A stretch of DNA of 30,314 bases from Bacteroides sp. (lineage in GTDB: Bacteria > Bacteroidota > Bacteroidia > Bacteroidales > Bacteroidaceae). The notes below the pieces were generated by a model, which did not search any database, was not told the origin of the DNA, and was given only the letters and a program-made list of their open reading frames with translations. Shown here piece by piece: positions 325 through 30,112 of this stretch. The translations under genes were made by a program, and so were the position numbers. The stretch spans positions 1-30,314 of the forward strand of contig DXOJ01000697.1 in the NCBI GenBank assembly GCA_019412865.1. The letters are read 5' to 3'. Numbering within the stretch: the first letter of the stretch is position 1; each line of letters opens with the position of its first letter.

Positions 325-332
325 TACATTTG
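325..332 (+). promoter_or_regulatory. Putative -7 promoter element of the VTC operon
   Basis: TACATTTG matches the Bacteroides -7 consensus TAnnTTTG exactly. The -33 position, 20 bp upstream, reads TTTC (301-304), a 3/4 match to TTTG in a T-rich tract. A start of transcription near 339 would give a leader of about 30 nt before the ATG at 368. Confidence 0.55.
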
Positions 333-367: not shown

Positions 368-1153
368 ATGAATATGAACGAGGCATGTAATGTAACCACC
401 GCACTTTCCGCTTTCTCCTCCATTTCTTTGGAAGAGATGAGTACCATCCGTTTGATGAACCGTACGGACACGAAGTATATCGTTTCGCTCTCTGCCCTGA
501 TGGACGTATTACAACGGGCAAATAATTGTTATCGTGTGCAAGAGGTGCAGGGGGAGCGAAATATAGCTTATCACACTACCTATCTCGACACTCCCGATTA
601 CGCCATGTATCTGGCTCATCAAAACGGAAGAGTGATCCGTGAGAAGATCCGTGTAAGGACGTATGTATCTTCCGGTCTGACTTTTCTGGAAGTGAAGAAT
701 AAGAATAACAAGGGGCGGACAGATAAAAAGCGGATTCGGGTGCAAGGAGTAAACTCTTTGCGTCAGGATGGGGGAGAAGAGTTTCTTCGCAATTATGCCT
801 GGTATGAGTTGTCCGCCTTGAAATTTCTACTGGAAAATCATTTTCATCGTATTACACTGGTGAATAAGGCAATGACAGAACGTCTGACCATCGATACTGG
901 TGTGCATTTCCATCATCTCATAACTGGAACGGAAGCAAGATTGGAAAATCTTGCTATCATAGAACTGAAACGTGACGGGAGAACTTATTCACCCATCGGT
1001 GAAATACTGCGCGAACTGCATGTGCGGCCTTCGGGAATTAGTAAATATTGTGTGGGAACCGTACTCACAGCCGGGAACTTAAAATATAATCGGTTTAAGA
1101 CCAAGTTGAGAATGGCACAGAAGATAGCAAAGAAGCAACTAATGAATATTTAA
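368..1153 (+). CDS. VTC-domain polyphosphate polymerase-like protein
   Basis: This 261-aa protein is read as a VTC domain protein (triphosphate tunnel metalloenzyme fold, the catalytic fold of the eukaryotic Vtc4 polyphosphate polymerase). The tunnel-type charged motifs are visible. They are R-x-D-x-KY near residues 32-37, an alternating basic strand R91-K93-R95-R97, E108-x-K110 (FLEVK), a KKR cluster near 120-122, an acidic/basic IELKRDG strand and a C-terminal SGISKY segment. There is no signal peptide or membrane segment, so it should act in the cytoplasm, perhaps at the inner membrane with its neighbour. It begins a four-gene operon, 17 nt before the DUF4956 gene. In other bacteria VTC and DUF4956 genes occur together, sometimes with CotH kinases. 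ATG 368 is chosen, with a second in-frame ATG at 374. Polymer-making activity is inferred from the family, not shown. Confidence 0.85.
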   Translation: MNMNEACNVTTALSAFSSISLEEMSTIRLMNRTDTKYIVSLSALMDVLQRANNCYRVQEVQGERNIAYHTTYLDTPDYAMYLAHQNGRVIREKIRVRTYVSSGLTFLEVKNKNNKGRTDKKRIRVQGVNSLRQDGGEEFLRNYAWYELSALKFLLENHFHRITLVNKAMTERLTIDTGVHFHHLITGTEARLENLAIIELKRDGRTYSPIGEILRELHVRPSGISKYCVGTVLTAGNLKYNRFKTKLRMAQKIAKKQLMNI

Positions 1154-1170
1154 TATAAAACCTGAATAAT

Positions 1171-1845
1171 ATGTTTGATGAACTAAGTGATATTACATTA
1201 ATAGAAACACCATTGATGGATAGCGCAGGTTTCCTGGAATTGTTGTTGCGATTCTGCTTCAATTTACTGGTGGTATCCTGCATTATTCATCTGTTTTATT
1301 ACCCTAAGAGCAAACGGCGTGATTATTACTTCACCTTTACGCTGATAAGCATCAGTATTTTCCTGATGATTTTCTTATTGGGAAGTGTCAAACTGAAAAT
1401 AGGTTTTGCGCTCGGTTTATTTGCCATTTTCGGTATCATCCGTTATCGGACCGAGTCAATGCCCGTGCGTGAGATGACTTATCTTTTTGTCATCATTGCT
1501 ATTTCGGTAATCAATGCCCTTGCCGTGGAAATCAGTTATGCTGAACTGGTATGTACCAACTTGCTTTTCATTGTCAGTATATGGCTTTGCGAAAGCAATC
1601 GCTGGCTGAAACATATCTCCTGTAAACTGATTCAATATGATAGAATAGAACTTATAAAACCCGAAAGGGAATTGGACTTATTACGCGATCTCCGCGAACG
1701 GACAGGACTTGACATTGTTCGTGTGGAAGTGGGACATATCGATTTTTTACGGGATACAGCCATGCTGAAAATCTATTATGAACCGCTGAAAGATGAGATA
1801 AATACGATTGATACGTTGACCCGCTTACCTAGAGAAAATGAATAA
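1171..1845 (+). CDS. DUF4956 family inner-membrane protein
   Basis: This 224-aa protein has about four hydrophobic segments in its N-terminal two thirds (about residues 20-43, 52-72, 76-92 and 100-140, the last probably two helices). The hallmark DUF4956 loop FAIFGIIRYR...REMTYLF spans roughly 84-107. A soluble C-terminal domain (about 150-224) contains the segment RELDLLRDLRERTG. The family is of unknown biochemical function and is usually encoded beside VTC-domain proteins, which suggests a membrane partner or exporter for the VTC product (inference). It lies 17 nt downstream of the VTC gene, and its stop overlaps the next start by 8 nt, indicating translational coupling. Confidence 0.85.
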   Translation: MFDELSDITLIETPLMDSAGFLELLLRFCFNLLVVSCIIHLFYYPKSKRRDYYFTFTLISISIFLMIFLLGSVKLKIGFALGLFAIFGIIRYRTESMPVREMTYLFVIIAISVINALAVEISYAELVCTNLLFIVSIWLCESNRWLKHISCKLIQYDRIELIKPERELDLLRDLRERTGLDIVRVEVGHIDFLRDTAMLKIYYEPLKDEINTIDTLTRLPRENE

Positions 1846-2629
1846 GAAAATGGAAGATAAGTCAGGCAGAGAAAGTCAGAAGAGATTCTGGGGGACAGGT
1901 AGATACCTGATTGGTTGCTTATTATTGTTGTGTATGGCAGGGAAGAGCCATGCGCAGGGAGATGACTTCGGTGTGTGGACCAGTGCGGAAGTGAAGAAAA
2001 AGATATTCTCCGGTTTCGATGCTTCTCTGGAAGGTGAATTTCGTACAAGAGACGGATTGCAGACGGTGGAACGCTGGTCGGGTTCGGCAGGTGTTTCCTA
2101 TAAGATGTTTCGTTGGCTGAAAGCATCCGCAGGATATACGTTTATTCATTATTACCATCCGATGGAAGTCACTAAAAAAGGAAATTATATCCCCGAATAT
2201 TGGCAGCCGAAACATCGTGTAAACTTGTCATTAACAGGAAAGGTGGACTGGCGCCGCTTCACGTTTTCCCTTCGTGAACGGTGGCAATATACTTATCGTC
2301 CCAGTCAGTCGGTTCCCAAATTCGATGGTGATGACGGGAGTGTGAAGAATGATGAATATATTAGCGGAAAAGGAAAAAATGTGCTTCGTTCCCGCCTTCA
2401 GGTGGAATATAACATACGTAAATGTGCTTTTACTCCTTATACTTCATGCGAACTTTCACATTCGTTGAATGAGATTGGTGCTTTTGAAAAGTTGCGATGG
2501 ACATTGGGGACGGAATGGAAACTAAGTAAGAAACATGCTCTCGATTTTTATTATCTGTATCAAAATAAGGCAGACGACGATGAGGCAAACGGGCATGTGA
2601 TCGGTGCAGGATATTCATTTAAGTTTTAA
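1838..2629 (+). CDS. DUF2490 family outer-membrane beta-barrel protein
   Basis: This 263-aa protein has an N-terminal export signal: a hydrophobic segment YLIGCLLLLCMAG followed by an A-x-A type site near SHAQ. The rest is rich in alternating amphipathic, aromatic strands (ASAGYTFIHYY, FTFSLRERWQY) and ends in GAGYSFKF. A terminal phenylalanine is the usual beta-barrel assembly signal. The start DFGVWTSAEVKKKI and the pattern of strands fit DUF2490, small barrels of unknown cargo. The gene overlaps DUF4956 by 8 nt. An alternative start at 1850 would shorten the long n-region. In this operon it is the likely outer-membrane component. Confidence 0.8.
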   Translation: MNKKMEDKSGRESQKRFWGTGRYLIGCLLLLCMAGKSHAQGDDFGVWTSAEVKKKIFSGFDASLEGEFRTRDGLQTVERWSGSAGVSYKMFRWLKASAGYTFIHYYHPMEVTKKGNYIPEYWQPKHRVNLSLTGKVDWRRFTFSLRERWQYTYRPSQSVPKFDGDDGSVKNDEYISGKGKNVLRSRLQVEYNIRKCAFTPYTSCELSHSLNEIGAFEKLRWTLGTEWKLSKKHALDFYYLYQNKADDDEANGHVIGAGYSFKF

Positions 2630-2647
2630 TAGATAAAACAAGAAATT

Positions 2648-4642
2648 ATGAAAAGGATTGTGTTGTTTTGGATACCGCTTTTATTGCTGTTGTTGGTGAA
2701 CTGTACGACGGAATCATTCGATTTCGGCGATCAGGAAGGAATATTGGTCGGAGGTTCGGGAGGTGGAGGAAGCAGTCAGCCCAACCCAACGATTCCCGAG
2801 GGATCGGAAGATTTATTGGGATTTACAATCACTTTTGATGAAAGTGATAGGACGACGTATGGAAGCATGTCGGAAACGGTCACTTCCGATGATGATTTTA
2901 TAGAGAACTCCCAATTTGCCTCCGTGGTGACGATTACCTATAATGGAACGACTGCCACGGTAGGTAATGGAGTTTCCGGAGTGGAAGTATCTTCCAATGG
3001 GGCGCATATTGTGGTCAATTCTACGGTCAGCGGAGTAGAGTATGTGTTGAACGGGACTACTACGAACGGCTCGTTCAAGGTATACAGCGAAAAGAAATTC
3101 AAATTATCACTGGCGGGGGTGTCTATACTCAATCCGGTAGGTGCTGCCATTAATATCCAGTCTTCCAAACGTGTGTTTGTGGTATGCGCGGATGAAACAA
3201 CGAATGTGTTGACAGATGGGTCTTCTTATACGGCAACTACTGATGGAGAGGATATGAAAGCCTGTCTGTTCAGTGAGGGGCAGCTCATTTTCAGTGGAGG
3301 CGGTTCACTCACAGTTACCGGAAATTATAAACATGCCATCACAAGCGATGATTATGTGCGTTTCCGTAGCGGGTGTAATATTACGGTAGCTTCGGCCAAA
3401 AAAGATGGAATCCATACCAATGAATCTGTGATTATCGGCGGCGGAATACTGAATATATCTTCAGACGGCGATGCTATTCAGTGTGAAGAGGGAGGAATTA
3501 CGATGACCGGAGGCTTTGCAAAACTCTCTACAACGGATAATAAAGCGCATGGGTTGAAATCCTGTCTGGATGTGGTAATCAGTGGCGGTGCTATTCAGGC
3601 ACAAGTGGCGGGAGCAGCCTCCAAAGGAATATCCTGTGATGGTAACCTGACCATCTCCGGAGGAAAGCTGACTGCATTCACTTCTCAAACCGCTCTTTAT
3701 GAAGATAATGATTTAAGTTCGTGTGCAGGAATTAAATGTGACGGAAATATCCTGATTACAGGAGGGGAAATCGCTATTCAGAGTACAGGTGGAGCCGGTA
3801 AAGGTATCAACTGTGACGGTTCGATTACCATCAATGACGGCACGGTGAAAGTGATAACTACCGGTACGCAGTGTGTATATGGCAAGCTCGATTCGTCGGC
3901 AAAAGGAATCAAAGCGGACGGTGCGTTGACAATCAATGGAGGAACGGTGCTTGTGAAGGCTACCGGTGGGGAAGGCAGTGAGGGTATCGAGAGTAAAAGT
4001 GTGTTGACTGTCAATGAGGGTACAGTTGCCGTGCTTTGTTACGATGACTGTATGAATGCAAGTAACAGCATTGTTCTTAATGGTGGTAATATTTATTGTT
4101 ATAGTTCCGGAAATGACGGCATTGACTCTAATGGTACGTTGACCATTACGGGGGGAGTGATTGTATCGTCGGGTACTACTTCTCCCGAAGACGGATTCGA
4201 TTGCGATCAGAATACCTTTAAGATTACCGGGGGGATTGTTCTGGGTATTGGAGGAGGAACAAGTACACCTACATCAAGTGTATGTACGCAACGCACTGTG
4301 ATCTATGGCGGTTCGGGAAGTAACGGAGAAATACTGAATATCCAGTCGGCTGACGGAACCAGCGTACTGACCTATCAGATTCCCCGTGCTTATTCTCAAA
4401 TGACGGTATTGTTCAGTAGTCCGAATCTGACCTCGGGCGGTAGTTATACTATCTCAAAAGGAGGAACGGTTTCCGGTGGTTCCGAGTTCTTCGGGTTATA
4501 TTCGGGAGCCACTTATTCCGGTGGCACGCAGGCGGCAACATTTACTGCCAGTTCGATGGTGACACAAGTCGGCAGCACTTCCGGCGGTGGCCAGCCCGGT
4601 GGTGGAGGAGGTGGACATGGACCTGGTGGATGGGGATGGTAA
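2648..4642 (+). CDS. Cthe_2159-like beta-helical carbohydrate-binding-domain lipoprotein
   Basis: This 664-aa protein has a lipoprotein signal, with hydrophobic residues 4-17 and a lipobox ending LVNC (C19). A glycine/serine/proline linker follows (about 33-50). The body (about 60-600) is a regular parallel beta-helix with repeated cores such as GIKADGALTINGGTV, GINCDGSITINDGTV and GIDSNGTLTITGG. This is characteristic of the Cthe_2159 family (carbohydrate-binding domain-containing protein). The C. thermocellum founder is reported to bind calcium and acidic polysaccharide/cellulose. Many turn Asp/Asn residues could bind Ca2+. The C-terminus is an odd Gly-rich tail with seven or more Gly around a His-Gly-Pro and a terminal GWGW. 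It is the last gene of the operon, 18 nt after DUF2490, and is presumably anchored in the outer membrane. A hairpin covers its stop codon. Confidence 0.82.
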   Translation: MKRIVLFWIPLLLLLLVNCTTESFDFGDQEGILVGGSGGGGSSQPNPTIPEGSEDLLGFTITFDESDRTTYGSMSETVTSDDDFIENSQFASVVTITYNGTTATVGNGVSGVEVSSNGAHIVVNSTVSGVEYVLNGTTTNGSFKVYSEKKFKLSLAGVSILNPVGAAINIQSSKRVFVVCADETTNVLTDGSSYTATTDGEDMKACLFSEGQLIFSGGGSLTVTGNYKHAITSDDYVRFRSGCNITVASAKKDGIHTNESVIIGGGILNISSDGDAIQCEEGGITMTGGFAKLSTTDNKAHGLKSCLDVVISGGAIQAQVAGAASKGISCDGNLTISGGKLTAFTSQTALYEDNDLSSCAGIKCDGNILITGGEIAIQSTGGAGKGINCDGSITINDGTVKVITTGTQCVYGKLDSSAKGIKADGALTINGGTVLVKATGGEGSEGIESKSVLTVNEGTVAVLCYDDCMNASNSIVLNGGNIYCYSSGNDGIDSNGTLTITGGVIVSSGTTSPEDGFDCDQNTFKITGGIVLGIGGGTSTPTSSVCTQRTVIYGGSGSNGEILNIQSADGTSVLTYQIPRAYSQMTVLFSSPNLTSGGSYTISKGGTVSGGSEFFGLYSGATYSGGTQAATFTASSMVTQVGSTSGGGQPGGGGGGHGPGGWGW

Positions 4643-4740: not shown

Positions 4741-5955
4741 ATGAAAAGACTGCGTAAACAACACGTGCTGGAGCAGAGTATTTACGGAGCTATCTGGATC
4801 GTAATATTTCTTCTTCCGCTGATAGGCGGATACTTTGCCATGAGTGGAGGACTTGAACGGGAGGAAACCCGTATGGTGATCCGCGAATCATGGTTGAGTA
4901 TCCTTCCTTTTTTCGTGCTTTTCCTGTTAAATAATTATGGGCTGGTTCCCTATTTTCTTTTTAAGAAAAGGTACTGGCAATATACTGTTTCGTTGATTTT
5001 TGTAATAGGAATGATTTGTTGGCTTTCTCCGTTTCCTTCTGCCAATCATTTCCCCAAAGATTTCAAGCGAGGAGAGTTGCCTCTTCGTATGAAGGAGAAC
5101 CGGAGGGACCAGATTATTAAGACGAGAGAAAAGGCGAGGGAGGAAGGGGATGTGCATTGGCATGAATCCAATCCCGAACAACGTCCTAGGGGAATGGGAG
5201 ATCCAAATGGTCCCGGAAGATTTCCAAAACCGACTCCTTTTCCTTATCCTCCTTTTGTGCTCCGCTATCTTATTCATTTCATCATTGCCTTTTTGATGGT
5301 AGGGTTCAATATCGCCATCAAACTTTTCTTTAAATCTTTCCGTGATGAAGAAATGCTGAAGGAACTGGAACATCAACGTTTGCAGTCGGAACTGCAGTAT
5401 TTGAAATATCAGATTAATCCTCATTTCTTCATGAATACGCTCAATAATATTCATGCGTTGGTGGATATTGATACGGGGAAAGCGAAAAGTACGATTGTGG
5501 AACTCTCTAAACTGATGCGTTATGTGCTTTATGAAGCGAGTAATAAAACGATTTTGCTTTCACGTGAGGTTCAGTTTCTTAAAAATTACATTGCCCTGAT
5601 GAGTTTGCGCTATACCAACAAAGTATCTATTCAGATGGATTTTCCGGCCGAAGTGCCCGAAGTGCAGATTCCTCCTTTGCTTTTTGTCTCTTTTGTGGAA
5701 AATGCTTTTAAGCATGGAGTCAGTTATCGGAGCGAGTCTTTTATTCATGTCTTGATGCAGTTGGATGAGGGCAACCGGCTTTCATTCCGTTGTTCCAACA
5801 GCAATAATGGTTCGGCTGACGAACAGCATCATGGCATCGGACTCGAGAATATCCGTAAGCGGTTGAGGCTTTTATTTGGCAATGATTATACGCTTTCCAT
5901 TACCGAAGAGGAACATAAATTTGATGTCTTACTTATTATACCTTTATTAGAATGA
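4741..5955 (+). CDS. LytS/YehU-type sensor histidine kinase
   Basis: This 404-aa membrane kinase has hydrophobic segments near residues 14-34, 52-74, 80-97 and 175-197. An unusual hydrophilic loop (about 98-172) between the last two is rich in Arg, Glu and Pro (PGRFPKPTPFPYPP). The cytoplasmic part is a His_kinase (PF06580) domain with H-box YQINPHFFMNTLNNI (H228 probable phospho-acceptor). The ATPase N-box is FVENAFKHG (N321), with a glycine motif GIGLENIRKRL. It overlaps the response-regulator start by 4 nt (ATGA). Such pairs regulate a few envelope or metabolic genes, and the adjacent VTC operon is a natural candidate target (inference). It has its own promoter at 4684-4715. Confidence 0.93.
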   Translation: MKRLRKQHVLEQSIYGAIWIVIFLLPLIGGYFAMSGGLEREETRMVIRESWLSILPFFVLFLLNNYGLVPYFLFKKRYWQYTVSLIFVIGMICWLSPFPSANHFPKDFKRGELPLRMKENRRDQIIKTREKAREEGDVHWHESNPEQRPRGMGDPNGPGRFPKPTPFPYPPFVLRYLIHFIIAFLMVGFNIAIKLFFKSFRDEEMLKELEHQRLQSELQYLKYQINPHFFMNTLNNIHALVDIDTGKAKSTIVELSKLMRYVLYEASNKTILLSREVQFLKNYIALMSLRYTNKVSIQMDFPAEVPEVQIPPLLFVSFVENAFKHGVSYRSESFIHVLMQLDEGNRLSFRCSNSNNGSADEQHHGIGLENIRKRLRLLFGNDYTLSITEEEHKFDVLLIIPLLE

Positions 5956-6680
5956 AATGTATAGCAATAGATGATGAGCCGTTAGCATTGACGCAGTTGT
6001 CGGATTATATATCCCAGGTACCTTTTTTGTCTTTGGTAAAGTCATGCCAGGATGCGTTCGAGGCAATGAAGATATTGTCCGAAGAGGAGGTTGATTTGAT
6101 CTTTGTGGATATTAATATGCCCGATTTGAACGGATTGGATTTCATACGTTCTTTGGTGAACCGTCCGTTGGTGATTTTCACTACTGCTTATTCTGAATAT
6201 GCGGTAGAGGGTTTCAAACTGGATGCCGTAGATTATCTGCTGAAACCGTTTGAGTTCCAGGATTTATTGAAAGCGGCGGATAAAGCCCGCAGGCAATTTG
6301 AATATCGTTTGTTGGAACAACAGGGTGAAATAGGAAATGCTTCGCAGATAAAAGGAGATTCATTATTCGTGAAGAGCGATTACAGAGTGGTTCGCATCGA
6401 TGTGAAGAATATCCGCTATATTGAGGGGATGAGTGAGTATGTGCGTATCTTTGTGGAAGGAGAGGACAAGCCTGTAATAACGCTTGCCAGCCTCCAGAAA
6501 ATGGAAGAACGGCTTCCCACGCATTTCATGCGGGTCCACCGTTCTTATATTGTCAATCTTCGCAAGATTACCGAAGTTTCCCGTCTTCGCATTATCTTTG
6601 ATAAGAATACTTATATTCCTGTCGGTGATAATTATAAGGAGAAATTTACGGAATACATTGGGAAATTAAGCCTTTCTTAA
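5952..6680 (+). CDS. LytTR-family response regulator
   Basis: This 242-aa protein has an N-terminal receiver domain (about 1-120) with acidic residues D7/D8, phospho-acceptor D53 in FVDINMPDLNG, T77/T78 and K98 in the LLKPF motif. A C-terminal LytTR DNA-binding domain (about 140-240) contains VKSDYRVVRI, IRYIEGMSEYVRI and MRVHRSYIVNL. It is translationally coupled to the kinase by a 4-nt overlap. Its stop lies inside a 16-bp perfect palindrome TTAAATAATTATTTAA (6677-6692), which also contains the stop of the convergent peptidase gene. Confidence 0.95.
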   Translation: MKCIAIDDEPLALTQLSDYISQVPFLSLVKSCQDAFEAMKILSEEEVDLIFVDINMPDLNGLDFIRSLVNRPLVIFTTAYSEYAVEGFKLDAVDYLLKPFEFQDLLKAADKARRQFEYRLLEQQGEIGNASQIKGDSLFVKSDYRVVRIDVKNIRYIEGMSEYVRIFVEGEDKPVITLASLQKMEERLPTHFMRVHRSYIVNLRKITEVSRLRIIFDKNTYIPVGDNYKEKFTEYIGKLSLS

Positions 6681-6684
6681 ATAA

Positions 6685-7869
6685 TTATTTAATTCCCAGT
6701 TTTTTGGCAATTTCTTTAGGAAGTGCATCTTTATGCACCAGGATATTCATTGTCTTGTAGGCAACGAATGCTTTGGAAGCATACCAGATACCATCATATT
6801 TGCCTGATTTACCCCAAGAGTTTTTCACCATGAAGTATTCTTTTCCATTCTGGTCTTTAGCGATGCCGTAGATTACCATTCCGTGGTCGTCTGTTGTTTC
6901 CCAGTTGTCAAAAGCAACTTGACGCATTTCCTGGGTAATATCCTTTTCAGGGAAAGGTTTGGTGAATAGTTCTCTGCGTTTGTCGGCGGCAGTCAATCCT
7001 GTCCAACGGGCCATGTCTGAACCGGACAGTTCAGATTCTTTGGCTGCATCTGGCATTACGGCGATACCGTCACGTGAGAATCCTTGTTCGCTGACATCGC
7101 TACCCCATGCAAAGGTATAGCCTTTCTTTACTGCATTGTCCATAACAGCCATCAGTTCTTCGATAGGCAGGTTGTAAGACAGACCATTACGCCAGTTATC
7201 CTGAATTTCGATGGCGAATTGAGAATAGAACGGATGGTGTGTATAAGAAGTCAGTGATACATAGTCGTTATAGTTCAATCCCAGTGATTCGGCAAAAGTC
7301 TTCGGAGTATATTCTTTGCCTTTGTAGGTGAACTTCTCCGGACATGCTCCTAGGTAAGTGTCATAAATGGCACTTAGTCCGTTTTTCCATACCGGAGTCA
7401 GTTTGCTTAATTTACCTTTTGCAATCGCATTGATATAACCGGAAGCAACAGCATCCAGCTCATTATGTACCGGCAGCGTATCACCATACATAATACCCGG
7501 CATCACTTCTTGCGGAACGATACCATAATTCTTGATGCAATACATTACATCATAAAAACTTCCACCCGGAGAGAAAGAACTGTCACCGTGATAACGTACA
7601 TAGTTTACTCCGCGATCCTGCATCGTTTTGTGTACAACAAACATTTCAGACAGGTCGTATTCACCTTTACCTAAACGAAGTAGTTCTGATTCAACAAATC
7701 CGAGAGTTGAGAAACTCCAGCAAGTACTCGAACGATTTTGGTTCTTGATAGAAGTTATCGGATTTTCTTTCACTGTCGTGAAAACAAAACCTTCTTCAGG
7801 TTTTGCATCTTGTGCCATAACACTTAGGCTGAACAGGCCTAAAGCAGCAATAAGGATTGTCTTTTTCAT
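6685..7869 (-). CDS. C1-family (bleomycin hydrolase/aminopeptidase C-like) cysteine peptidase
   Basis: This 394-aa papain-fold peptidase has the catalytic set Q44 and C50 in NQNRSSTCWSFST, H329 in DDHGMVIYG and N350 in VKNSWGK. The order and length fit the C1B/bleomycin-hydrolase-like group. Unlike the cytoplasmic bleomycin hydrolases it starts with a clear signal peptide (MKKTILIAALGLFSLSVMAQ, cleavage after A19 likely), so it should act in the periplasm or outside. It is monocistronic and tail-to-tail with the response regulator with only 4 nt between their stops. A -7 element lies 34 bp upstream of its start. Confidence 0.92.
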   Translation of the reverse strand: MKKTILIAALGLFSLSVMAQDAKPEEGFVFTTVKENPITSIKNQNRSSTCWSFSTLGFVESELLRLGKGEYDLSEMFVVHKTMQDRGVNYVRYHGDSSFSPGGSFYDVMYCIKNYGIVPQEVMPGIMYGDTLPVHNELDAVASGYINAIAKGKLSKLTPVWKNGLSAIYDTYLGACPEKFTYKGKEYTPKTFAESLGLNYNDYVSLTSYTHHPFYSQFAIEIQDNWRNGLSYNLPIEELMAVMDNAVKKGYTFAWGSDVSEQGFSRDGIAVMPDAAKESELSGSDMARWTGLTAADKRRELFTKPFPEKDITQEMRQVAFDNWETTDDHGMVIYGIAKDQNGKEYFMVKNSWGKSGKYDGIWYASKAFVAYKTMNILVHKDALPKEIAKKLGIK

Positions 7870-8003: not shown

Positions 8004-9209
8004 TTATTGTATCTTGGCGCGGTAAGTTCGCTCGGAGAAAGTAATATTCAGGAACAGGGAAAGGCTGTTTTCTTTTTGCATACCGTTAGGAATTTTCATC
8101 TGGCCTTTATATTTCAATCCGATAGAAAGGACGTTGTTATTGCGCAATCCGAAGTTAAGTCCGGTACTGACGTAATATTCGGTTGCCTTTTTCTTTTGAA
8201 TGACGATATAGGAATTATTAATACCTGTTCCCAATAGGATGCTGACCGGATTACGATAGACATTGCCCAATGTATATCTTCCACCGACTGATAACCGGTG
8301 TTGATTCTCAAAACTGACATTGGATTGGGAAGATTGCATCCGGCTCCAGTCCACATATTTGTAGTCGATGGTTGCCATCCAACGTAGAGTGTTGTAGGAA
8401 GCTCCGAGCCCAAAGAATTGAGGAAGACATTGGCGATAGCGTTTCAGGCTTTTTTCAATATCATCTCCTCCCGAACTGCTACTAACGTATAAGTTATTAT
8501 CCTGCTTAAAATCCTGAGAGTAACCATATACGGCACCGGCAACGAAAGAACGTTCGCGGTCTATAGCCCATTTATACTGTACACCGAAATCCGCATAAAA
8601 AGTATGTTTGTAGGAGCTGGTTTCTTCTGTGGCAGTACCTTGCGTCTCCGTTTGTGTGATGGTCCCCGTCACATAAGAAAGATTGGTGCCGACAGAAAAT
8701 CTTTTTCCGAAAAGGTAAGCCGTGCTGATACCCATCTTGGAAAGTCCTCCTTCACCCTGAAAGAGAGAAGAGATAGTACCTCCATTGGTGCCTGCCACTT
8801 CTTCATCCAGCGTGATGGCATATCCCACACTGCTGACGGGAGCCATGAAAATTGCTCCATACCAGCGTGGCATAATCCGGCAACCGATACTTAGGTTATT
8901 CAGATTTCCGGTGACGGAACGGTTACTTGCTCCTCGTTGCGAATAAATCTGGTATGCTCCCATGATACCGGCATCGATCTGGAAGCGTTGTTCGGTCAAC
9001 TCTGTGAGTGAAGCCGGATTGGCGCTGTTAAGGAAATTATTTCCTCGCAATGCAATGCCTGTGCCGCCCAGTCCGGCATATTGCCCGCCTTCTCCGGTAG
9101 AAAGTTCTCCCAGTCCGAACATGGAAGTAGGGGAGTTCGTTGTATTTTGTGCAATAACTATAGAGACAGGAGTATAGAATGCCAGAAGGCAAAACAAAAT
9201 CTTTTTCAT
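8004..9209 (-). CDS. FadL/OmpP1-like outer-membrane beta-barrel protein
   Basis: This 401-aa protein has a signal peptide (MKKILFCLLAFYTPVSIVIA, cleavage before Q21). An N-terminal stretch SPTSMFGLGELSTGEGGQYAGLGGTGIAL...NSANPASLTEL resembles the plug region of FadL/OmpP1-like transporters, with the NPAS motif. Many amphipathic strands with aromatic girdles follow (RWMATIDYKYVDW, LSIGLKYKGQM, LSLFLNITF). The cargo is unknown. It overlaps the DUF4270 gene by 4 nt (ATGA), so the two are co-translated. There is no terminal Phe, as the protein ends RTYRAKIQ after a final strand. Confidence 0.8.
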   Translation of the reverse strand: MKKILFCLLAFYTPVSIVIAQNTTNSPTSMFGLGELSTGEGGQYAGLGGTGIALRGNNFLNSANPASLTELTEQRFQIDAGIMGAYQIYSQRGASNRSVTGNLNNLSIGCRIMPRWYGAIFMAPVSSVGYAITLDEEVAGTNGGTISSLFQGEGGLSKMGISTAYLFGKRFSVGTNLSYVTGTITQTETQGTATEETSSYKHTFYADFGVQYKWAIDRERSFVAGAVYGYSQDFKQDNNLYVSSSSGGDDIEKSLKRYRQCLPQFFGLGASYNTLRWMATIDYKYVDWSRMQSSQSNVSFENQHRLSVGGRYTLGNVYRNPVSILLGTGINNSYIVIQKKKATEYYVSTGLNFGLRNNNVLSIGLKYKGQMKIPNGMQKENSLSLFLNITFSERTYRAKIQ

Positions 9210-10531
9210 TGTTGATAAGTTTTGTAAAGTATGATAAGTTTGGTATTCTTTTTATTGGCGGTATGTTCTCCGTCGCCGAAAATAACGCCTTGAAGTGTGG
9301 TATAGAACAAGTTGTCCGGAAGAAATAATTGTAGTTTCTGACGATCATATCCGGTAGTTCCCAGGTTTGTTTGCAGGAAAGAGGTGATGTCAAAAGAGTA
9401 ATAAGTCTCCTCATAAGACATCTCGTCGACTACTAGATTTCCGCTTTGTACGGAACTCCCGGTGAGGTCGGTGATTACACTTTGCGTCACATTTTCATTG
9501 TTGGCGGTGTAGAGAGCCAGGCTTTTGGGCAACGGGTACATGCCGTCATAAGTTCCTTTTACCGGATATAACTGTAACGTTGCGCTCTCGATAGTCACAA
9601 GCTCTCCTTTTTCGCAGAGATTATTTAAATGTGGGAAGTCGATGGTGACATACATACCTGTCATTCCCTGCAGGTAGACCTGATGCTCGCTTTTTCCGGA
9701 AGAGTATTCATTGCCGTCCCCACTTTGCAGGTTGGCTATCGGGATGTTTGAGCGGTCTTGTTCTATTTTGTTGTAAGTCAGCGTGCTGCTTGTATTGAAA
9801 ACCAGTGTTTTTTCGTTCAGTGTTTCCGTAATCTGGTGATAGTAGACCGTGATGCACATACTGGAGTCGTTGACTTGAAATCCGCTGATACAAGCGTCAT
9901 TTGCATCGGGTATAAAAGCAATTCCCTTGAAATAATCATGGAAGAAATCCTGGGATTGTACCCATCGGCCATCATTCAGCATCAAGTTGAACCATTCTTC
10001 TCCCCATGCATCCGGCAATCGTATTTCCAGTTCTTCGCTCGGTGAGCCCGGAGTAGGACGAAAGTCGAAAGATGCCAGTGGAGTTTCGTTGTAATAGGCA
10101 GTAGTAGTGTTGTATAGGTACCCTCTATCGTCCAGTTCTATATTCTTTGTCAGTTCATGCAGATGAATGCGTTGGGTTTTTAGTGTATCTCCCAGGTAAT
10201 TGCCCGAAGAATACAGGCGTATGGTGATCGAGTCGAACTCATATTGGATGTTTTCATCAAAAGAATAGGAAGGTACTTCATACTCTGCGTAAAAAGAGGC
10301 GGTAATTTTCCCCCATAAGTTGTCGTCACGGTATCCTATCTGGCAAACCGTATCTCCCGAAGTGGCTATGGAGTCGCTTAATACTGTACTAAGTAATACC
10401 GTACAAGTATCCATCTGTTCGTTGAGGAATGAACTTTGTACCCATTTCGCTCCTATGGACGATGAATCGTCTACACAAGCGAAAAAAGAAAGAGATATAA
10501 AGAATGAAAAAAGTAGTATGATTGACTTCAT
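9206..10531 (-). CDS. DUF4270 family lipoprotein
   Basis: This 441-aa protein is counted from the ATG at 10531. A longer in-frame start at 10591 would put 20 charged or polar residues before the signal and is rejected. The signal MKSIILLFSFFISLSFFAC ends in a lipobox with C19, followed by VDDSSSIGAKW. The body is all-beta with a repeated pattern of IxLYSSGNYLGDT- and IxSATLQLYPV-like strands, typical of DUF4270 (PF14092), an exported Bacteroidetes family of unknown role. It is first gene of a two-gene minus-strand operon with the FadL-like barrel, suggesting a lipoprotein partner of that pore (inference). Confidence 0.82.
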   Translation of the reverse strand: MKSIILLFSFFISLSFFACVDDSSSIGAKWVQSSFLNEQMDTCTVLLSTVLSDSIATSGDTVCQIGYRDDNLWGKITASFYAEYEVPSYSFDENIQYEFDSITIRLYSSGNYLGDTLKTQRIHLHELTKNIELDDRGYLYNTTTAYYNETPLASFDFRPTPGSPSEELEIRLPDAWGEEWFNLMLNDGRWVQSQDFFHDYFKGIAFIPDANDACISGFQVNDSSMCITVYYHQITETLNEKTLVFNTSSTLTYNKIEQDRSNIPIANLQSGDGNEYSSGKSEHQVYLQGMTGMYVTIDFPHLNNLCEKGELVTIESATLQLYPVKGTYDGMYPLPKSLALYTANNENVTQSVITDLTGSSVQSGNLVVDEMSYEETYYSFDITSFLQTNLGTTGYDRQKLQLFLPDNLFYTTLQGVIFGDGEHTANKKNTKLIILYKTYQQ

Positions 10532-10561
10532 GTAGTAAAAATGAAATTGGTTTTGTACCGG

Positions 10562-10592
10562 CAAAAGAAGAGGTTTTAAATAGTCCTCCAAA
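10562..10592 (-). promoter_or_regulatory. Putative promoter of the DUF4270 operon
   Basis: On the minus strand TTTG (10592-10589) precedes TTCTTTTG (10569-10562) by 19 bp. The -7 box has one mismatch to TAnnTTTG. The -33 element overlaps the left arm of the 14-bp inverted repeat that begins at 10590. Confidence 0.45.
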
Positions 10593-10672: not shown

Positions 10673-10692
10673 TATGCGTGCCCGTTGCCGCC

Positions 10693-10700
10693 TACATTTG
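10693..10700 (+). promoter_or_regulatory. Putative -7 element of the Kelch/DUF4907 operon
   Basis: TACATTTG matches TAnnTTTG exactly and lies 24 bp before the ATG at 10724. The -33 position is a T-run, not TTTG, and overlaps the right arm of the inverted repeat, which would fit activator or repressor control. Confidence 0.5.
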
Positions 10701-10723
10701 CGGTTGTAATCAACGACATATTT

Positions 10724-11782
10724 ATGAATACGAAAATGAATAAATTACTTTGCATGATGGTGGTGCTGCTTTCATTGGCGGCATGTACGGATGATACTGA
10801 ATATACGGCAGGTGTGTGGTATCGCCGTTCTGATTTTGATGGTGTGGCGCGTACGGACGCAGCTGGTTTTACGATTGGTAACATAGGGTACCTCTGCACC
10901 GGATACCGGGGGAGTACCAAAGACCGTTTGAAAGATTGTTGGGCGTATGACATTGAGGCTAATTCGTGGACACAGTGTACATCAATGCCCGATGCAGCTC
11001 CAGCCCGGAATGCAGCTACAGGTTTTGCAGTAGGTACCAAAGGATATATTGCTACCGGTTACGATGCGACAAAAAAGGATTATCTGAATGATTGCTGGCA
11101 GTATGATCCTGCCACGAATTCCTGGAAGGAGATGGCTTCTATTCCGGATGGAACTGATGGGACTAATATCTATGGTAAACGGTATTATGCGCTTTCTTTC
11201 GGCATTGGTCAGTATGGGTATCTGGGTACAGGTTACAACGATAATTATCAAAAGGATTTCTGGAAGTTCGACCCGTCGGTGGGAGATAAAGGAGAATGGA
11301 CAGCCATGAGTGGATTTGGCGGACAGAAGAGAATGGGCGGTATGGCCTTCGTCATAGATGATATAGCTTATATCTGCGGCGGTGAAAATAACGGTTCGGA
11401 TGTGACGGATTTCTGGTGTTTTAATCAGGCAACGGGTACTTGGAAAGAATTGCGCGAACTTTACGATAAGAGTGATGATGATTATGACGACGATTACACT
11501 TCTATCGTCCGTTCTTATGCTTGTGCTTTCGTGATCGACGGTAAAGGATACATTGCTGCGGGGCAGACTGCTGGTGGTAGTTATCGTTCCAATTATTGGA
11601 TTTACGACCCTCTGACAGACCTCTGGGATGGGGAAGATTTGACAGATTTCGAAGGAAGTACACGCTCGAAAGCCGTATGCTTTTCTACTGGAAAACGGGG
11701 AATTATAGCTACGGGAGGAGCTTCTACTTATTATTACGATGATACTTGGGAGTTGAAGCCTTATGAATATGAAGAGAAATAA
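10724..11782 (+). CDS. Kelch-repeat surface lipoprotein
   Basis: This 352-aa protein is counted from ATG 10724, with an alternative at 10736. A TTG at 10685 would add residues before the signal and overlap the promoter. The signal ends in lipobox SLAAC (C21). About six Kelch-like blades follow, with repeated G-Y-(I/L)-x-T-G-Y and D-x-W-x-(Y/F)-(D/N)-x(5)-W motifs: GYLCTGYRG...DCWAYD, GYIATGYDA...DCWQYDPATNSW, GYLGTGYND...DFWKFD, AYICGGENN...DFWCFN, GYIAAGQTA...NYWIYD, GIIATGGAS...DTWELK. An acidic insert DKSDDDYDDDYTS sits between blades 4 and 5. It is probably a beta-propeller binding protein on the cell surface. It overlaps the DUF4907 gene by 20 nt. Confidence 0.88.
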   Translation: MNTKMNKLLCMMVVLLSLAACTDDTEYTAGVWYRRSDFDGVARTDAAGFTIGNIGYLCTGYRGSTKDRLKDCWAYDIEANSWTQCTSMPDAAPARNAATGFAVGTKGYIATGYDATKKDYLNDCWQYDPATNSWKEMASIPDGTDGTNIYGKRYYALSFGIGQYGYLGTGYNDNYQKDFWKFDPSVGDKGEWTAMSGFGGQKRMGGMAFVIDDIAYICGGENNGSDVTDFWCFNQATGTWKELRELYDKSDDDYDDDYTSIVRSYACAFVIDGKGYIAAGQTAGGSYRSNYWIYDPLTDLWDGEDLTDFEGSTRSKAVCFSTGKRGIIATGGASTYYYDDTWELKPYEYEEK

Positions 11783-15040: not shown

Positions 15041-15073
15041 TATAACATGAAAAACAAAGAAATAACATGGTAA
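15041..15073 (+). other. Leader mini-ORF and duplicated start region
   Basis: An ATG at 15047 opens an eight-codon frame (MKNKEITW) that ends at 15071-15073, overlapping the true ATG (15067) in another frame. Its start region TATAACATGAAAAACAAA (15041-15058) is identical over 18 bp to the start region of the next gene, the GH3 (17202-17219), which begins MKNK. It may be a relic start or a translational coupling leader. Confidence 0.5.
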
Positions 15074-17178
15074 AAAGGTTTGATTGGTTATTGGTCTATT
15101 TATTGTTTTCAATAGGGATAATGGCACAGTCCGGCGGCAGGAAACAGTACAATTCTTACAAAGGATTGGTTATGGCTGGTTATCAGGGGTGGTTCAACAC
15201 CCCTGGTGACGGTTCCGGCCGTGGATGGCATCATTACAATGGTCGTGAAGGATTTCGTCCGGGATCGTGTTCCGTAGATCTTTGGCCGGAGGTATCGGAG
15301 TATAAGAAGCTCTATAAAACGGATTTTACTTTTGCGGATGGTAAGCCTGCATCCGTCTTTTCTTCTTATGACGAGTCGACTGTCAATGTTCATTTCAGAT
15401 GGATGAAAGAGTATGGACTGGATGGAGTGTTCATGCAGCGTTTTATCGCAGAAATCCGGAATGAAAGCGGATTGAAGCATTTTAATAAAGTATTGAACTC
15501 GGCAATGAAAGCTGCTAATAAATATGAACGGGCTATTTGTGTGATGTATGACTTGAGCGGGATGCAGCCTGGAGAAGAAAAACTGTTGCTCAAAGACATT
15601 GCGGAAATTGCGCAACGCCATTCTTTAAAAAATCATGCGAAAAACCCTTCTTATCTGTATCACAATGGCAAACCGCTGGTAACAGTATGGGGTGTGGGAT
15701 TTAATGATAATCGCCGTTATGGATTGAAAGAAGCTGCACATATTATCGACGGCTTAAAATCACAGGGATTTAGTGTGATGCTTGGAGTACCTACTCAATG
15801 GCGGGAGCTGAAAGGGGATACGGAATCAGATCCCAGGTTGCATGAGCTTATCAGAAAATGCGATATTGTGATGCCTTGGTTCGTGGGACGTTACAATGAA
15901 ACCACTTATCCGAAATATCAGAAGTTGGTGGAAGAAGATATCCAGTGGGCGAAAAAGAATCAGGTTGATTATGTACCGTTGGTTTTTCCGGGTTTCTCCT
16001 GGGGGAATATGAAAGGTAAAGATCATAATTCATTTATCCCCCGCAATAAAGGCTCTTTTCTTTGGAAACAGATGATGGGAGCTATCCGGGCGGGTGCCGA
16101 AATGATTTATGTAGCTATGTTTGACGAAATTGATGAGGGGACGGCTATCTTTAAATGTGCAAAGGAAGTTCCGACAGGAAAAAGTACATTCGTTCCTATC
16201 GAGGAAGGAGTAGAAAGTGACCATTATCTGAAACTGGTTGGTGAAGCCGCTAAGGTTCTGCGCAAAGAAAAGGCGATAGCTTTTAATACCAGCCTGAATC
16301 CGGCAACTCCGAATCCTTTCATCCGGCATATGTACACAGCAGACCCTTCGGCTCATGTTTGGGAAGACGGACGTCTGTACGTATATGCTTCCCATGATAT
16401 AGCACCTCCGCGAGGTTGTGATTTGATGGATCGTTATCATGTGTTTTCAACCGATGATATGGTGACATGGACGGATCATGGAGAGATATTAAGCTCCGAT
16501 CAGGTGCCATGGGGACGCAAAGAAGGAGGATTTATGTGGGCTCCGGATTGTGCTTATAAAAACGGCACTTACTATTTTTATTTTCCTCATCCCAGTGAAA
16601 CAGACTGGAACGACAGTTGGAAGATCGGAGTGGCTACCAGCAATAAACCGGCGGAAGGATTCAAAGTGCAGGGATATGTTGAAGGGATGGATCCGATGAT
16701 TGACCCTTGTGTCTTTGTAGATGACGACGGGCAGGCGTATATCTATAATGGCGGTGGCGGCACCTGTAAAGGAGGTAAGTTGAAAGATAATATGATGGAG
16801 TTGGATGGCCCGATGCAACTCATGAAAGGACTGGAAGATTTCCATGAGGCAGCCTGGATTCACAAATATAATGGAAAGTATTATCTCTCTTATTCCGACA
16901 ATCACGATGAAAACTGGAACGATGGAGTGAAGGGGGACAACCGGATGCGCTATGCGATCAGTGACTCTCCGTTGGGACCTTGGGAATCGAAAGGTATTTA
17001 TATGGAACCGACTGACAGCTATACCAATCATGGATCTATTGTCAAGTTCAAAGGACAATGGTATGCCTTTTACCATAACAGTGCGTTGTCCGGGCACGAC
17101 TGGCTTCGTTCTATCTGTGTAGATAAACTGTATTACAATCCTGATGGTACAATCAAGCTGGTAAGGCAAACAAAATGA
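15067..17178 (+). CDS. GH99/GH71-like::GH43 two-domain exported glycoside hydrolase
   Basis: This 703-aa protein has a signal peptide (1-20, cleavage IMA/Q). The N-terminal half (about 30-400) is a TIM-barrel of the GH71/GH99-like superfamily: GLVMAGYQGWFNTPGDG, VSVFSSYDEST-type loop, and MFDEIDEGTAIFK, whose E354/E357 pair resembles the E-x-x-E catalytic pair of GH99 enzymes. The C-terminal half (about 415-700) is a GH43 five-bladed propeller with D426 (TADPSAHVW), D546 (MIDPCVFVDDDG) and E594 (FHEAAWIHKYNG), the usual base, modulator and acid. Both domains look intact, so two sequential cleavages on one glycan are likely; substrates are unknown. It is first gene of the operon, 29 nt before GH3. 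Confidence 0.87.
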   Translation: MVKRFDWLLVYLLFSIGIMAQSGGRKQYNSYKGLVMAGYQGWFNTPGDGSGRGWHHYNGREGFRPGSCSVDLWPEVSEYKKLYKTDFTFADGKPASVFSSYDESTVNVHFRWMKEYGLDGVFMQRFIAEIRNESGLKHFNKVLNSAMKAANKYERAICVMYDLSGMQPGEEKLLLKDIAEIAQRHSLKNHAKNPSYLYHNGKPLVTVWGVGFNDNRRYGLKEAAHIIDGLKSQGFSVMLGVPTQWRELKGDTESDPRLHELIRKCDIVMPWFVGRYNETTYPKYQKLVEEDIQWAKKNQVDYVPLVFPGFSWGNMKGKDHNSFIPRNKGSFLWKQMMGAIRAGAEMIYVAMFDEIDEGTAIFKCAKEVPTGKSTFVPIEEGVESDHYLKLVGEAAKVLRKEKAIAFNTSLNPATPNPFIRHMYTADPSAHVWEDGRLYVYASHDIAPPRGCDLMDRYHVFSTDDMVTWTDHGEILSSDQVPWGRKEGGFMWAPDCAYKNGTYYFYFPHPSETDWNDSWKIGVATSNKPAEGFKVQGYVEGMDPMIDPCVFVDDDGQAYIYNGGGGTCKGGKLKDNMMELDGPMQLMKGLEDFHEAAWIHKYNGKYYLSYSDNHDENWNDGVKGDNRMRYAISDSPLGPWESKGIYMEPTDSYTNHGSIVKFKGQWYAFYHNSALSGHDWLRSICVDKLYYNPDGTIKLVRQTK

Positions 17179-17207
17179 GTGATTGACTAAAGAAAAACGA
17201 ATATAAC

Positions 17208-20072: not shown

Positions 20073-20080
20073 AGCCATCA
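20059..20080 (+). other. Intercistronic hairpin over the GH3 stop codon
   Basis: TGGTGGCTC (20059-20067) pairs with GAGCCATCA (20072-20080) around a TGTA loop, a 9-bp stem with one G-U pair. The TAG stop (20070-20072) is in the loop and stem edge. It is not followed by a T-run, and the next gene starts 22 nt later, so mRNA processing or differential expression is more likely than termination. Confidence 0.4.
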
Positions 20081-20102
20081 CCTTCATCTAATTCCTGATA
20101 AA

Positions 20103-21818
20103 ATGAAACAATTACTTTTGGTTTCGTGGTTGCTGTCACTGTCCGCTATCTTGGGATTGCCGGAAGTGAAAGCAGATGTAAGGATGCCTTTGATTTTCGG
20201 TAACCACATGGTTTTGCAACAAGATACCCGGATTACGATTTGGGGATGGGCTGATGCCGGAGAAAACATTGAAGTACTCTTTGCCGGACAAAAAGTGAGA
20301 ACCACTGCCAATGCTGACGGGACATGGCAGGTAAAACTGAAGCCGGTAAAAACGAAGAAAAAAGGAGAGACGCTGACTATTACCGGAAAAAACAAACTGG
20401 TTTATTCGGATGTGCTGGTAGGTGATGTATGGGTTGCTTCCGGACAATCAAATATGGAGTGGGGGATCAAGGTCAGAAAAGAATATGCTGATGATATAGC
20501 TCATTCGGAAGATTCGTTGTTACGTTTATTCTTTGTTCCTAAAAATACGTCATTACAGCCATTGTCGGAGATTGAAATTCCTCAAGGAACCGCCAGTCCC
20601 GAACGGGCTGCCAGATGGGTGCTTTGTACTCCGGAGATGCTGGCAAAAATAAATGGGCAGGGTTTCTCTGCCACTGCCTATTACTTTGCACGTGATATGC
20701 GTGCTGCAAACGGACGTCCGTTAGGAGTGATACAGTCCGCCTGGGGTGGTACACGTGCAGAAGCTTGGACAAGCCTTTCCGGGCTAAAGCAGGAGCCTGC
20801 ATTGGCTCATTATGTAGCTGCTTACGAGAAAAATGTGAAAGATAATCCGGAAATACTGGCTACTTATCCGCAAAAGCAGAAAGAGTTTGATATAGCAGTC
20901 AGAGAATGGGATCAAACAATAGGTAAAGAGTGGAATCAGGCACAGAAAGAATGGGCGGTAGCCGTACGCGCTGCACAAGCCGATGGGAAACCGGCGCCCG
21001 CCAAACCGGAACCCAGAGTACCTCGTCCACCCAATCCACGCAAACCGGATGGTGGAAATAACGGCCCGGCTAATCTGTTTAACGCCATGATTTCTCCTTT
21101 AATTCCGTTAAGTATCAAAGGAGTAATCTGGTATCAGGGTGAATTTAATTCCGGTGGCTCGGCAAAAGAATATGCGACACTTTTTTCCCGGATGATTACA
21201 GATTGGAGGGAGAAATGGGGAATAGGAGATTTTCCTTTTGTATATGTACAGCTTCCTAATTTCGAGCCTGTAGATCAGGAACCTTCTGTTGAGGGGAACG
21301 GTTGGCGTTGGGTACGCGAAGGTCAGTTGAAAACACTGAACCTGCCTAATACTGCGATGGCGGTAACGATTGATGTTGGCGACCCGTTCGATTTGCATCC
21401 GGTTGATAAATACGATGTAGGACATCGGTTAGCCCTTGCTGCCCGTAAATTGGCATATGGAGAGAAAATTGTTGGTATGGGACCTCTTTATAAGAAAATG
21501 TCAGTGAAGGGCAATAAAATTATCTTGGAGTTTACCAATCAGGGTAAGAAGTTGATGATAGGGACTTCTCCCTATATCCCTGAAGGAGAACAGGTTTGTC
21601 CAAAGCCGACAAAACTCACTGGATTTGGCATTGCCGGGGTCGACCGTAAATTTGTTTGGGCGGATGCCGTCATAGAAGGTAATAAGGTTATTGTATCGAG
21701 TCATGAAGTTGCCGAACCCGTAGCTGTGCGCTATGGATTTTCCAATAGCCCGCGTTGTAATCTGTATAATGAGGAAGGGTTGCCGGCATCGCCTTTCCGT
21801 ACAGATCACTGGGAATGA
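20103..21818 (+). CDS. SGNH-type sialate O-acetylesterase-like carbohydrate esterase
   Basis: This 571-aa exported protein has a signal peptide (about 1-24) and an N-terminal beta-sandwich (MPLIFGNHMVLQQDTRITIWGWADAG...) usual for this family. The SGNH hydrolase (PF03629/sialate O-acetylesterase-like) shows block I GQSNMEW (S116), the GVIWYQGEFNSG block and D430-L-H432 (FDLHPVDKYD) as catalytic Asp/His. A long charged and proline-rich insert (about 255-320, KEWNQAQKEWAVAV...KPEPRVPRPPNPRKP) interrupts the catalytic region. In a plant-glycan operon it more likely removes acetyl groups from a polysaccharide than from sialic acid (inference). It lies 30 nt after the GH3 gene. Confidence 0.88.
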   Translation: MKQLLLVSWLLSLSAILGLPEVKADVRMPLIFGNHMVLQQDTRITIWGWADAGENIEVLFAGQKVRTTANADGTWQVKLKPVKTKKKGETLTITGKNKLVYSDVLVGDVWVASGQSNMEWGIKVRKEYADDIAHSEDSLLRLFFVPKNTSLQPLSEIEIPQGTASPERAARWVLCTPEMLAKINGQGFSATAYYFARDMRAANGRPLGVIQSAWGGTRAEAWTSLSGLKQEPALAHYVAAYEKNVKDNPEILATYPQKQKEFDIAVREWDQTIGKEWNQAQKEWAVAVRAAQADGKPAPAKPEPRVPRPPNPRKPDGGNNGPANLFNAMISPLIPLSIKGVIWYQGEFNSGGSAKEYATLFSRMITDWREKWGIGDFPFVYVQLPNFEPVDQEPSVEGNGWRWVREGQLKTLNLPNTAMAVTIDVGDPFDLHPVDKYDVGHRLALAARKLAYGEKIVGMGPLYKKMSVKGNKIILEFTNQGKKLMIGTSPYIPEGEQVCPKPTKLTGFGIAGVDRKFVWADAVIEGNKVIVSSHEVAEPVAVRYGFSNSPRCNLYNEEGLPASPFRTDHWE

Positions 21819-21852
21819 CACAAATACCAGAATAAATAAAAAGAAAAACACC

Positions 21853-23550: not shown

Positions 23551-23573
23551 TATAGTGTAAGATAAGAAGAAAG

Positions 23574-29988: not shown

Positions 29989-30112
29989 GATATTACAAGT
30001 TAATAATAGTTTGAGTATAAAAGTACGGCTCGACAATAAATATTAGAATGAAGTACCGCTTAATGTACACTTAATATGTGATTAATTGTCTCTGCTCTTG
30101 TTTTTCGTTGAT

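What the first reader, a model, noticed from the sequence alone, without database searches (positions are those of the whole stretch)
368..4642. Envelope-spanning VTC / DUF4956 / DUF2490 / beta-helix lipoprotein operon
Four tightly packed genes put a polyphosphate-polymerase-like enzyme in the cytosol, a multi-pass inner-membrane protein, an outer-membrane barrel and a surface beta-helix lipoprotein likely to bind Ca2+ or acidic polymers. This parts list would suit synthesis, export and surface display of an anionic polymer such as polyphosphate. VTC plus DUF4956 is a known pairing; joining it to an outer-membrane barrel and a Cthe_2159-like protein appears little described.
Basis: partly seen in the sequence, partly recalled or inferred. 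Interest (0 to 1): 0.72.

Follow-up and report, generated by a model that had tools for sequence, protein, structure and literature searches.

The report
Bacterial polyphosphate-export operon with surface module
A Bacteroides-type bacterium's four-gene operon looks like a bacterial counterpart of the yeast machine that makes a phosphate chain and pushes it through a membrane, here with extra parts that may carry the chain to the cell surface; the chemistry is predicted, not shown.

The parts
325..332 (+). candidate Bacteroides -7 promoter box TACATTTG (consensus TAnnTTTG recalled), 35 bp before the first ATG
   Evidence: pattern found; consensus match only, no evidence of use
368..1153 (+). 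VTC-domain (TTM) protein, 261 aa, soluble, predicted polyphosphate polymerase
1171..1845 (+). DUF4956 protein, 224 aa, five predicted membrane helices plus a C-terminal beta-alpha-beta-beta domain; predicted inner-membrane partner or translocon
1838..2629 (+). DUF2490 protein, 263 aa, signal-like N-terminus, predicted outer-membrane barrel
   Evidence: barrel inferred from family
2648..4642 (+). Cthe_2159-family beta-helix lipoprotein, 664 aa, Gly-rich tail
4741..5955 (+). His_kinase (LytS-like) membrane sensor; same transcription unit or linked regulator (inference)
   Evidence: order kept in L060, L080, L081
5952..6680 (+). response regulator with LytTR DNA-binding domain

Best explanation
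The operon encodes a bacterial, split counterpart of the yeast VTC complex. Step 1 (inferred from conserved ligands and fold): the cytosolic VTC protein polymerises phosphate from ATP in its tunnel. Step 2 (inferred): it docks on DUF4956, whose conserved Lys/Arg belt (K46, R49, R91, R93, R100) at the presumed cytosolic face guides the chain into a membrane channel, so synthesis and translocation are coupled as in yeast. Step 3 (inferred from what stands in that gene slot): in diderms an outer-membrane protein passes the chain on; here DUF2490. Step 4 (inferred, weakest): the Cthe_2159 lipoprotein holds or organises the anionic chain, or a matrix containing it, at the surface, perhaps through divalent cations. 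The two-component pair may control expression in response to an envelope or phosphate signal (inference). Shown: gene order, families, conserved residues, predicted folds, linkage. Not shown: every biochemical step.
Confidence: 0.45

Rival explanations
1. Accessory to a surface polysaccharide: VTC-DUF4956 delivers phosphoryl groups or controls a glycan matrix, and the surface protein (Cthe_2159, or CotH kinase elsewhere) binds or modifies that glycan. The product is then a phosphorylated or regulated polysaccharide, not free polyphosphate.
For: In streptococci, clostridia and bifidobacteria CotH, a VTC-type gene and DUF4956 sit beside Pel clusters (PMC7112168, passages). Annotated glycosyltransferases stand near CotH-VTC-DUF4956 in Pseudobutyrivibrio and Planococcus, and in a C. 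perfringens table (PMC2879425, passages). Cthe_2159 proteins bind cellulose and polygalacturonate (stated in PMC6712302, passages).
Against: No glycosyltransferase among the ten window ORFs scanned. Annotated neighbours in the Deinococcus, Shinella and Aminobacter loci include none (the gene tables are incomplete). Most neighbours were not identified, so a glycan partner elsewhere is not excluded.
Confidence: 0.25
2. Phosphate scavenging: the TTM enzyme hydrolyses polyphosphate or triphosphates taken up through the outer-membrane protein and DUF4956; the operon imports, it does not export.
For: D34 at the place of an acidic residue of triphosphatases (ExExK motif recalled). Porin_O_P and phytase-like neighbours, and phosphonate-transport and phosphatase genes near one Deinococcus pair, fit phosphorus uptake.
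Against: Closest fold is Vtc4 and not a triphosphatase; the first acid of the recalled ExExK motif is R32, as R196 in Vtc4. CotH and Cthe_2159 partners are not known uptake proteins (recalled). No importer among the ten window ORFs scanned; neighbours elsewhere were mostly not identified.
Confidence: 0.15
3. The VTC-DUF4956 pair is one machine, and DUF2490 and the Cthe_2159 lipoprotein are unrelated passengers.
For: Cthe_2159 is missing from most loci (8 of 62); 44 of 80 DUF2490 rows lie away from DUF4956.
Against: Linkage far above chance for Cthe_2159, the same association in another phylum, several gene orders, many changes on the tree while still clustered.
Confidence: 0.08

Closest known systems
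Yeast VTC complex (Vtc1/Vtc3/Vtc4)
   Same: TTM tunnel domain with the same basic residues and metal-binding Glu; membrane partner with a basic belt (analogy).
   Different: No SPX domain and no Vtc1-type membrane domain (only VTC and only DUF4956 found by Pfam); membrane part is a separate protein without detected kinship; adds outer-membrane and surface proteins and a two-component pair.
CotH / poly-phosphate polymerase / DUF4956 accessory genes of Gram-positive Pel clusters (PMC7112168)
   Same: Same VTC-type and DUF4956 pair, with a CotH partner.
   Different: No CotH among the ten window ORFs scanned and none in G001; Cthe_2159 and DUF2490 instead. Pel genes were not searched for.
Cthe_2159 family (4peu/4phb)
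   Same: Family match 256 bits, structure relative E 3.5e-19.
   Different: Lipoprotein in an operon with VTC-DUF4956-DUF2490; that setting was not found in the papers searched.
PPK1 polyphosphate kinase
   Same: Makes polyphosphate from ATP (stated in PMC10657179, passages).
   Different: Other protein family and fold (recalled); found in 100 of 159 genomes without association with VTC.

Membership tests
VTC / Vtc4-type polyphosphate polymerase | VTC Pfam domain over cut-off | tested here: met
   109 bits, cut-off 23
VTC / Vtc4-type polyphosphate polymerase | TTM tunnel fold nearest to Vtc4 | tested here: met
VTC / Vtc4-type polyphosphate polymerase | tunnel Lys/Arg and metal Glu of Vtc4 | tested here: met
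   ten positions identical; H283 is K in the bacterial profile, T198 is D; R361 not numbered
VTC / Vtc4-type polyphosphate polymerase | polyphosphate synthesis from ATP | not testable with these tools
   needs enzyme assay
Eukaryotic VTC complex | SPX domain on the polymerase | tested here: not met
   261 aa, only VTC found at E up to 0.1
Eukaryotic VTC complex | Vtc1-type membrane domain (DUF202, recalled) | tested here: not met
   only PF16316 found in the membrane protein at E up to 0.1; fold comparison inconclusive
VTC-DUF4956 pair | adjacent VTC and DUF4956 genes | tested here: met
   17-bp gap; 54 of 62 window-type DUF4956 hits in the survey have VTC within 4 kb
CotH-VTC-DUF4956 accessory group of Pel clusters | CotH kinase gene in the cluster | tested here: not met
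   none among the ten window ORFs scanned; none in G001
CotH-VTC-DUF4956 accessory group of Pel clusters | pel genes alongside | not tested
   no search for Pel families was made
Cthe_2159 family | Cthe_2159 domain over cut-off | tested here: met
   256 bits; 4peu E 3.5e-19
Cthe_2159 family | binding of acidic polysaccharide or Ca2+ | not testable with these tools
   needs binding assay; Ca2+ sites were not mapped
DUF2490 outer-membrane proteins | DUF2490 domain over cut-off | tested here: met
   127 bits
DUF2490 outer-membrane proteins | beta-barrel channel | not tested
Surface-exposed Bacteroides lipoprotein | lipobox and surface export signal | tested here: inconclusive
   lipobox LVNC present; the acidic export signal is recalled and only weakly resembled by TTESFDFGDQ

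The most novel reading that the evidence does not exclude
Bacteria have a dedicated route that makes polyphosphate and threads it through the whole envelope to the outside: a split VTC synthase-translocon (VTC + DUF4956) to which lineages plug different outer-membrane pores (DUF2490, TolC, Porin_O_P) and different surface handlers. In Cthe_2159 versions the chain is kept as a cation-linked surface or matrix polymer; in CotH versions the exported chain could be the phosphoryl donor for extracellular kinases, which have no ATP outside the cell.
Probability: 0.28. Interest if true: 0.85.

Novelty: new variant of a known kind. Interest (0 to 1): 0.6.

Why it matters
To my knowledge (recalled) no dedicated exporter of polyphosphate is established in bacteria. 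A VTC-like synthase linked to a membrane protein and to interchangeable outer-membrane and surface parts would be a concrete exporter candidate in Bacteroides, testable by gene deletion. It would also explain why a secreted kinase family (CotH) keeps company with a polyphosphate polymerase family in several phyla, and would give DUF4956, found in 86 of 159 Bacteroidales genomes surveyed, a function.

Tried and rejected
Natural VTC-DUF4956 fusion: one locus (L080) first looked like a single long frame, but that frame runs across a masked stretch, so no fusion is claimed. P0001 (another stretch joined to DUF4956) and P0176 (VTC joined to a glycosyltransferase) are single-member clusters and were treated as probable assembly joins; this was not tested.

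PPK1 replacement: rejected as a general rule in this sample. Phage or defence origin: no PHROGs or PADLOC match at E 0.01 for the four proteins. Plasmid copy of the operon: no near match in the plasmid collection. NCBIfam gave no name for genes 1-5. DUF4956 fold relatives: weak MscS-type, ribosomal and ferredoxin-like rows only, read as common arrangements. Expression: DUF4956-DUF2490 of B. thetaiotaomicron (BT3498-99) are listed as 7.6-fold lower without iron at P 0.175 (PMC10434189, passages), so not used. A search for B. thetaiotaomicron locus tags listed 20 of 31 papers, none of the 20 relevant by title. The low-scoring DUF4956 class (38 hits) goes with VTC (28 of 38 within 4 kb) but with neither DUF2490 nor Cthe_2159 (0 of 38 each): a different architecture. 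A first sample of 148 genomes of the phylum had DUF4956 in 45; it was used only as a source of sequences.

Limits of counts: hits at contig ends were not removed. One search used 32 of the listed Cthe_2159 rows (further repeat rows of the same genes left out). The CotH list is capped; 16 listed rows on relevant contigs were compared. In one search, 6 of the 80 named loci were dropped because my ORF caller did not label DUF4956; the 80 are the best of 571, so they lean towards the window's kind. Papers such as PMC7480376 and PMC9210967, which hold the word Cthe_2159, were seen only in listings. Plasmid-collection gene tables are incomplete.
Full report
WHAT IS THERE. Four + strand genes at 368-4642 are packed with gaps of 17, -8 and 18 bp. 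Pfam names them VTC, DUF4956, DUF2490 and Cthe_2159, all far over cut-off. A His_kinase gene (4741-5955) and a LytTR response regulator (5952-6680) follow. The nearest held genome, G001 (unnamed), carries the same six genes in the same order, and the window's VTC and DUF4956 are 99% identical to its copies. The next rows are Bacteroides salyersiae and B. cellulosilyticus, so the window most likely comes from a Bacteroides (inference). B. salyersiae keeps all six; the B. cellulosilyticus locus could not be read in full.

THE ENZYME. A profile of 40 bacterial VTC proteins finds yeast Vtc4 in the PDB at E 1.5e-15; the single window sequence alone found nothing. On the printed alignment the Vtc4 positions R196, K200, R264, R266, K281, K294, R296, E426, K428 and K458 meet identical profile residues; H283 meets K. 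The corresponding window residues are invariant in all sequences aligned, except R32 in one of 40. The predicted model (pLDDT 94.9) fits Vtc4 best by two programs. One difference counts against simple identity: D34, D in 53 of 53 close relatives and D or E in 40 of 40 wider ones, stands where Vtc4 has T198. No SPX domain was found.

THE MEMBRANE PROTEIN. DUF4956 is predicted with five membrane helices (18-47, 51-70, 74-93, 99-117, 123-142) and a C-terminal strand-helix-strand-strand domain (pLDDT 86.7). If that domain is cytosolic (inference), K46, R49, R91, R93 and R100 all lie on the cytosolic side; each is basic in at least 98% of 58 sequences, and R91 and R93 in all 48 of the wider set. 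Yeast VTC uses a positive belt between tunnel exit and channel entrance, though mutations of channel residues had mixed effects (PMC9911596, passages). The likeness is functional only: no sequence relative in the PDB and no clear fold relative was found.

CONSERVATION. In one sample of 159 Bacteroidales genomes each family was searched and places were compared. Of 62 window-type DUF4956 hits (over 100 bits, 58 genomes) 54 have VTC and 36 DUF2490 within 4 kb, and 8 have Cthe_2159 within 6 kb. Of 38 low-scoring hits 28 have VTC and none DUF2490 or Cthe_2159. Hits at contig ends were kept, so these are lower bounds. Eight of 31 Cthe_2159 genes lie within 6 kb of a DUF4956 hit, 0.10 expected by random placement, Poisson P 2.7e-13. 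Genome-level co-occurrence is weaker: 17 of 58 genomes with window-type DUF4956 have Cthe_2159, against 9 of 101 others, Fisher P 0.0015. CotH lies within 6 kb of at least 6 of the 62 and 5 of the 38 (capped list), and CotH genes were also identified at two further window-type loci, L070 and L074. Among 74 usable named loci of 80, VTC is within four genes in 67, DUF2490 in 67, Cthe_2159 in 27, regulator in 4 and kinase in 3, in orders such as VTC-DUF4956-DUF2490-Cthe_2159 (12) and Cthe_2159-DUF2490-VTC-DUF4956 (5). On a quick VTC+DUF4956 tree the Cthe_2159 link needs 17-19 changes, at least 14 on firm branches, and no shuffle of 500 was as low. So it behaves as a module gained and lost many times.

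OTHER PHYLA. Paenibacillus cellulosilyticus has a divergent kinase-regulator pair, then VTC, DUF4956, Cthe_2159; its regulator is OmpR-type, not LytTR. In the other Bacillota record with Cthe_2159, Acetoanaerobium, VTC-DUF4956 lies elsewhere, behind a regulator-like gene. CotH accompanies VTC-DUF4956 in Deinococcus taeanensis, Pseudobutyrivibrio, Planococcus, E. faecalis and Nonomuraea; Deinococcus sp. QL22 has the pair without CotH next to it. In Shinella and Aminobacter a phytase-like protein follows DUF4956-VTC. In Hymenobacter DUF4956 is followed by TolC and a T9SS-sorted protein, with no VTC recognised in the stretch. In Pseudoalteromonas it is followed by a Porin_O_P porin, with only a weak partial VTC match beside it. 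These 13 stretches from the plasmid collection are a small, uneven sample, five of them without annotation.

READING. The constant core is VTC plus DUF4956. An outer-membrane gene follows in most of the Bacteroidota loci read and in Pseudoalteromonas, not visibly in Deinococcus or the alphaproteobacteria; no DUF2490 match was found in the Gram-positive stretches scanned. The surface part varies. This fits a machine that makes something in the cytosol and delivers it beyond the envelope. The enzyme family and its intact ligands make polyphosphate the most likely product. I put 0.45 on synthesis coupled to export towards the surface. The main rival is an accessory role in a surface glycan (0.25), because the CotH version lies beside Pel genes in Gram-positives (PMC7112168, passages) and near glycosyltransferases in two loci read. 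Uptake and hydrolysis get 0.15.

NOVELTY. The VTC-DUF4956 pair and its CotH company are in print (PMC7112168). VTC, a gene annotated as tubulin/FtsZ GTPase in the DUF4956 position, and CotH also appear in a C. perfringens locus table (PMC2879425, passages; that this is DUF4956 is my inference). DUF4956-DUF2490 adjacency is visible in a B. thetaiotaomicron table (PMC10434189, passages). The set with Cthe_2159, its recurrence across Bacteroidales and in Paenibacillus, and the exchangeable outer-membrane slot were not found in searches (listings, and passages of the papers named here) of an open-licence library that lacks most subscription journals. Hence 'new variant of a known kind'.

Noticed in passing
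window 15067-26135 (+) and 26287-30036 (-): A run of large secreted-looking ORFs that read like a glycan-degradation locus (two long beta-glucosidase-like ORFs, sialate-esterase-like, GH43-like, GH2-like; names from reading the translations, no family search run).
   Followed up: no
window 8004-10591 (-) and 10685-11782 (+): DUF4270 protein with an adjacent 401-aa protein without a Pfam match, and a divergent kelch-repeat protein.
   Followed up: no
window 6685-7869 (-): C1-type peptidase convergent with the two-component pair; a relative also lies near the DUF4956 locus L076.
   Followed up: partly
L068 4260-5416, and 20-23 of 74 named loci: Two small proteins (my labels UP242, UP133; UP242 with SdrD_B and other prealbumin-like matches) often sit just upstream of VTC in Bacteroidales loci, with and without Cthe_2159; a further candidate surface module.
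   Followed up: partly
P0176 (439 aa) and P0001 (346 aa): Single database proteins joining VTC to a glycosyltransferase and another stretch to DUF4956; probably assembly joins.
   Followed up: partly
L161 6425-7516 (Pseudoalteromonas): The outer-membrane gene after DUF4956 matches Porin_O_P, 'phosphate-selective porin O and P'; the family is broad (recalled), so selectivity is not shown.
   Followed up: partly
G001: The nearest genome has two PPK1 matches as well as the VTC operon.
   Followed up: no
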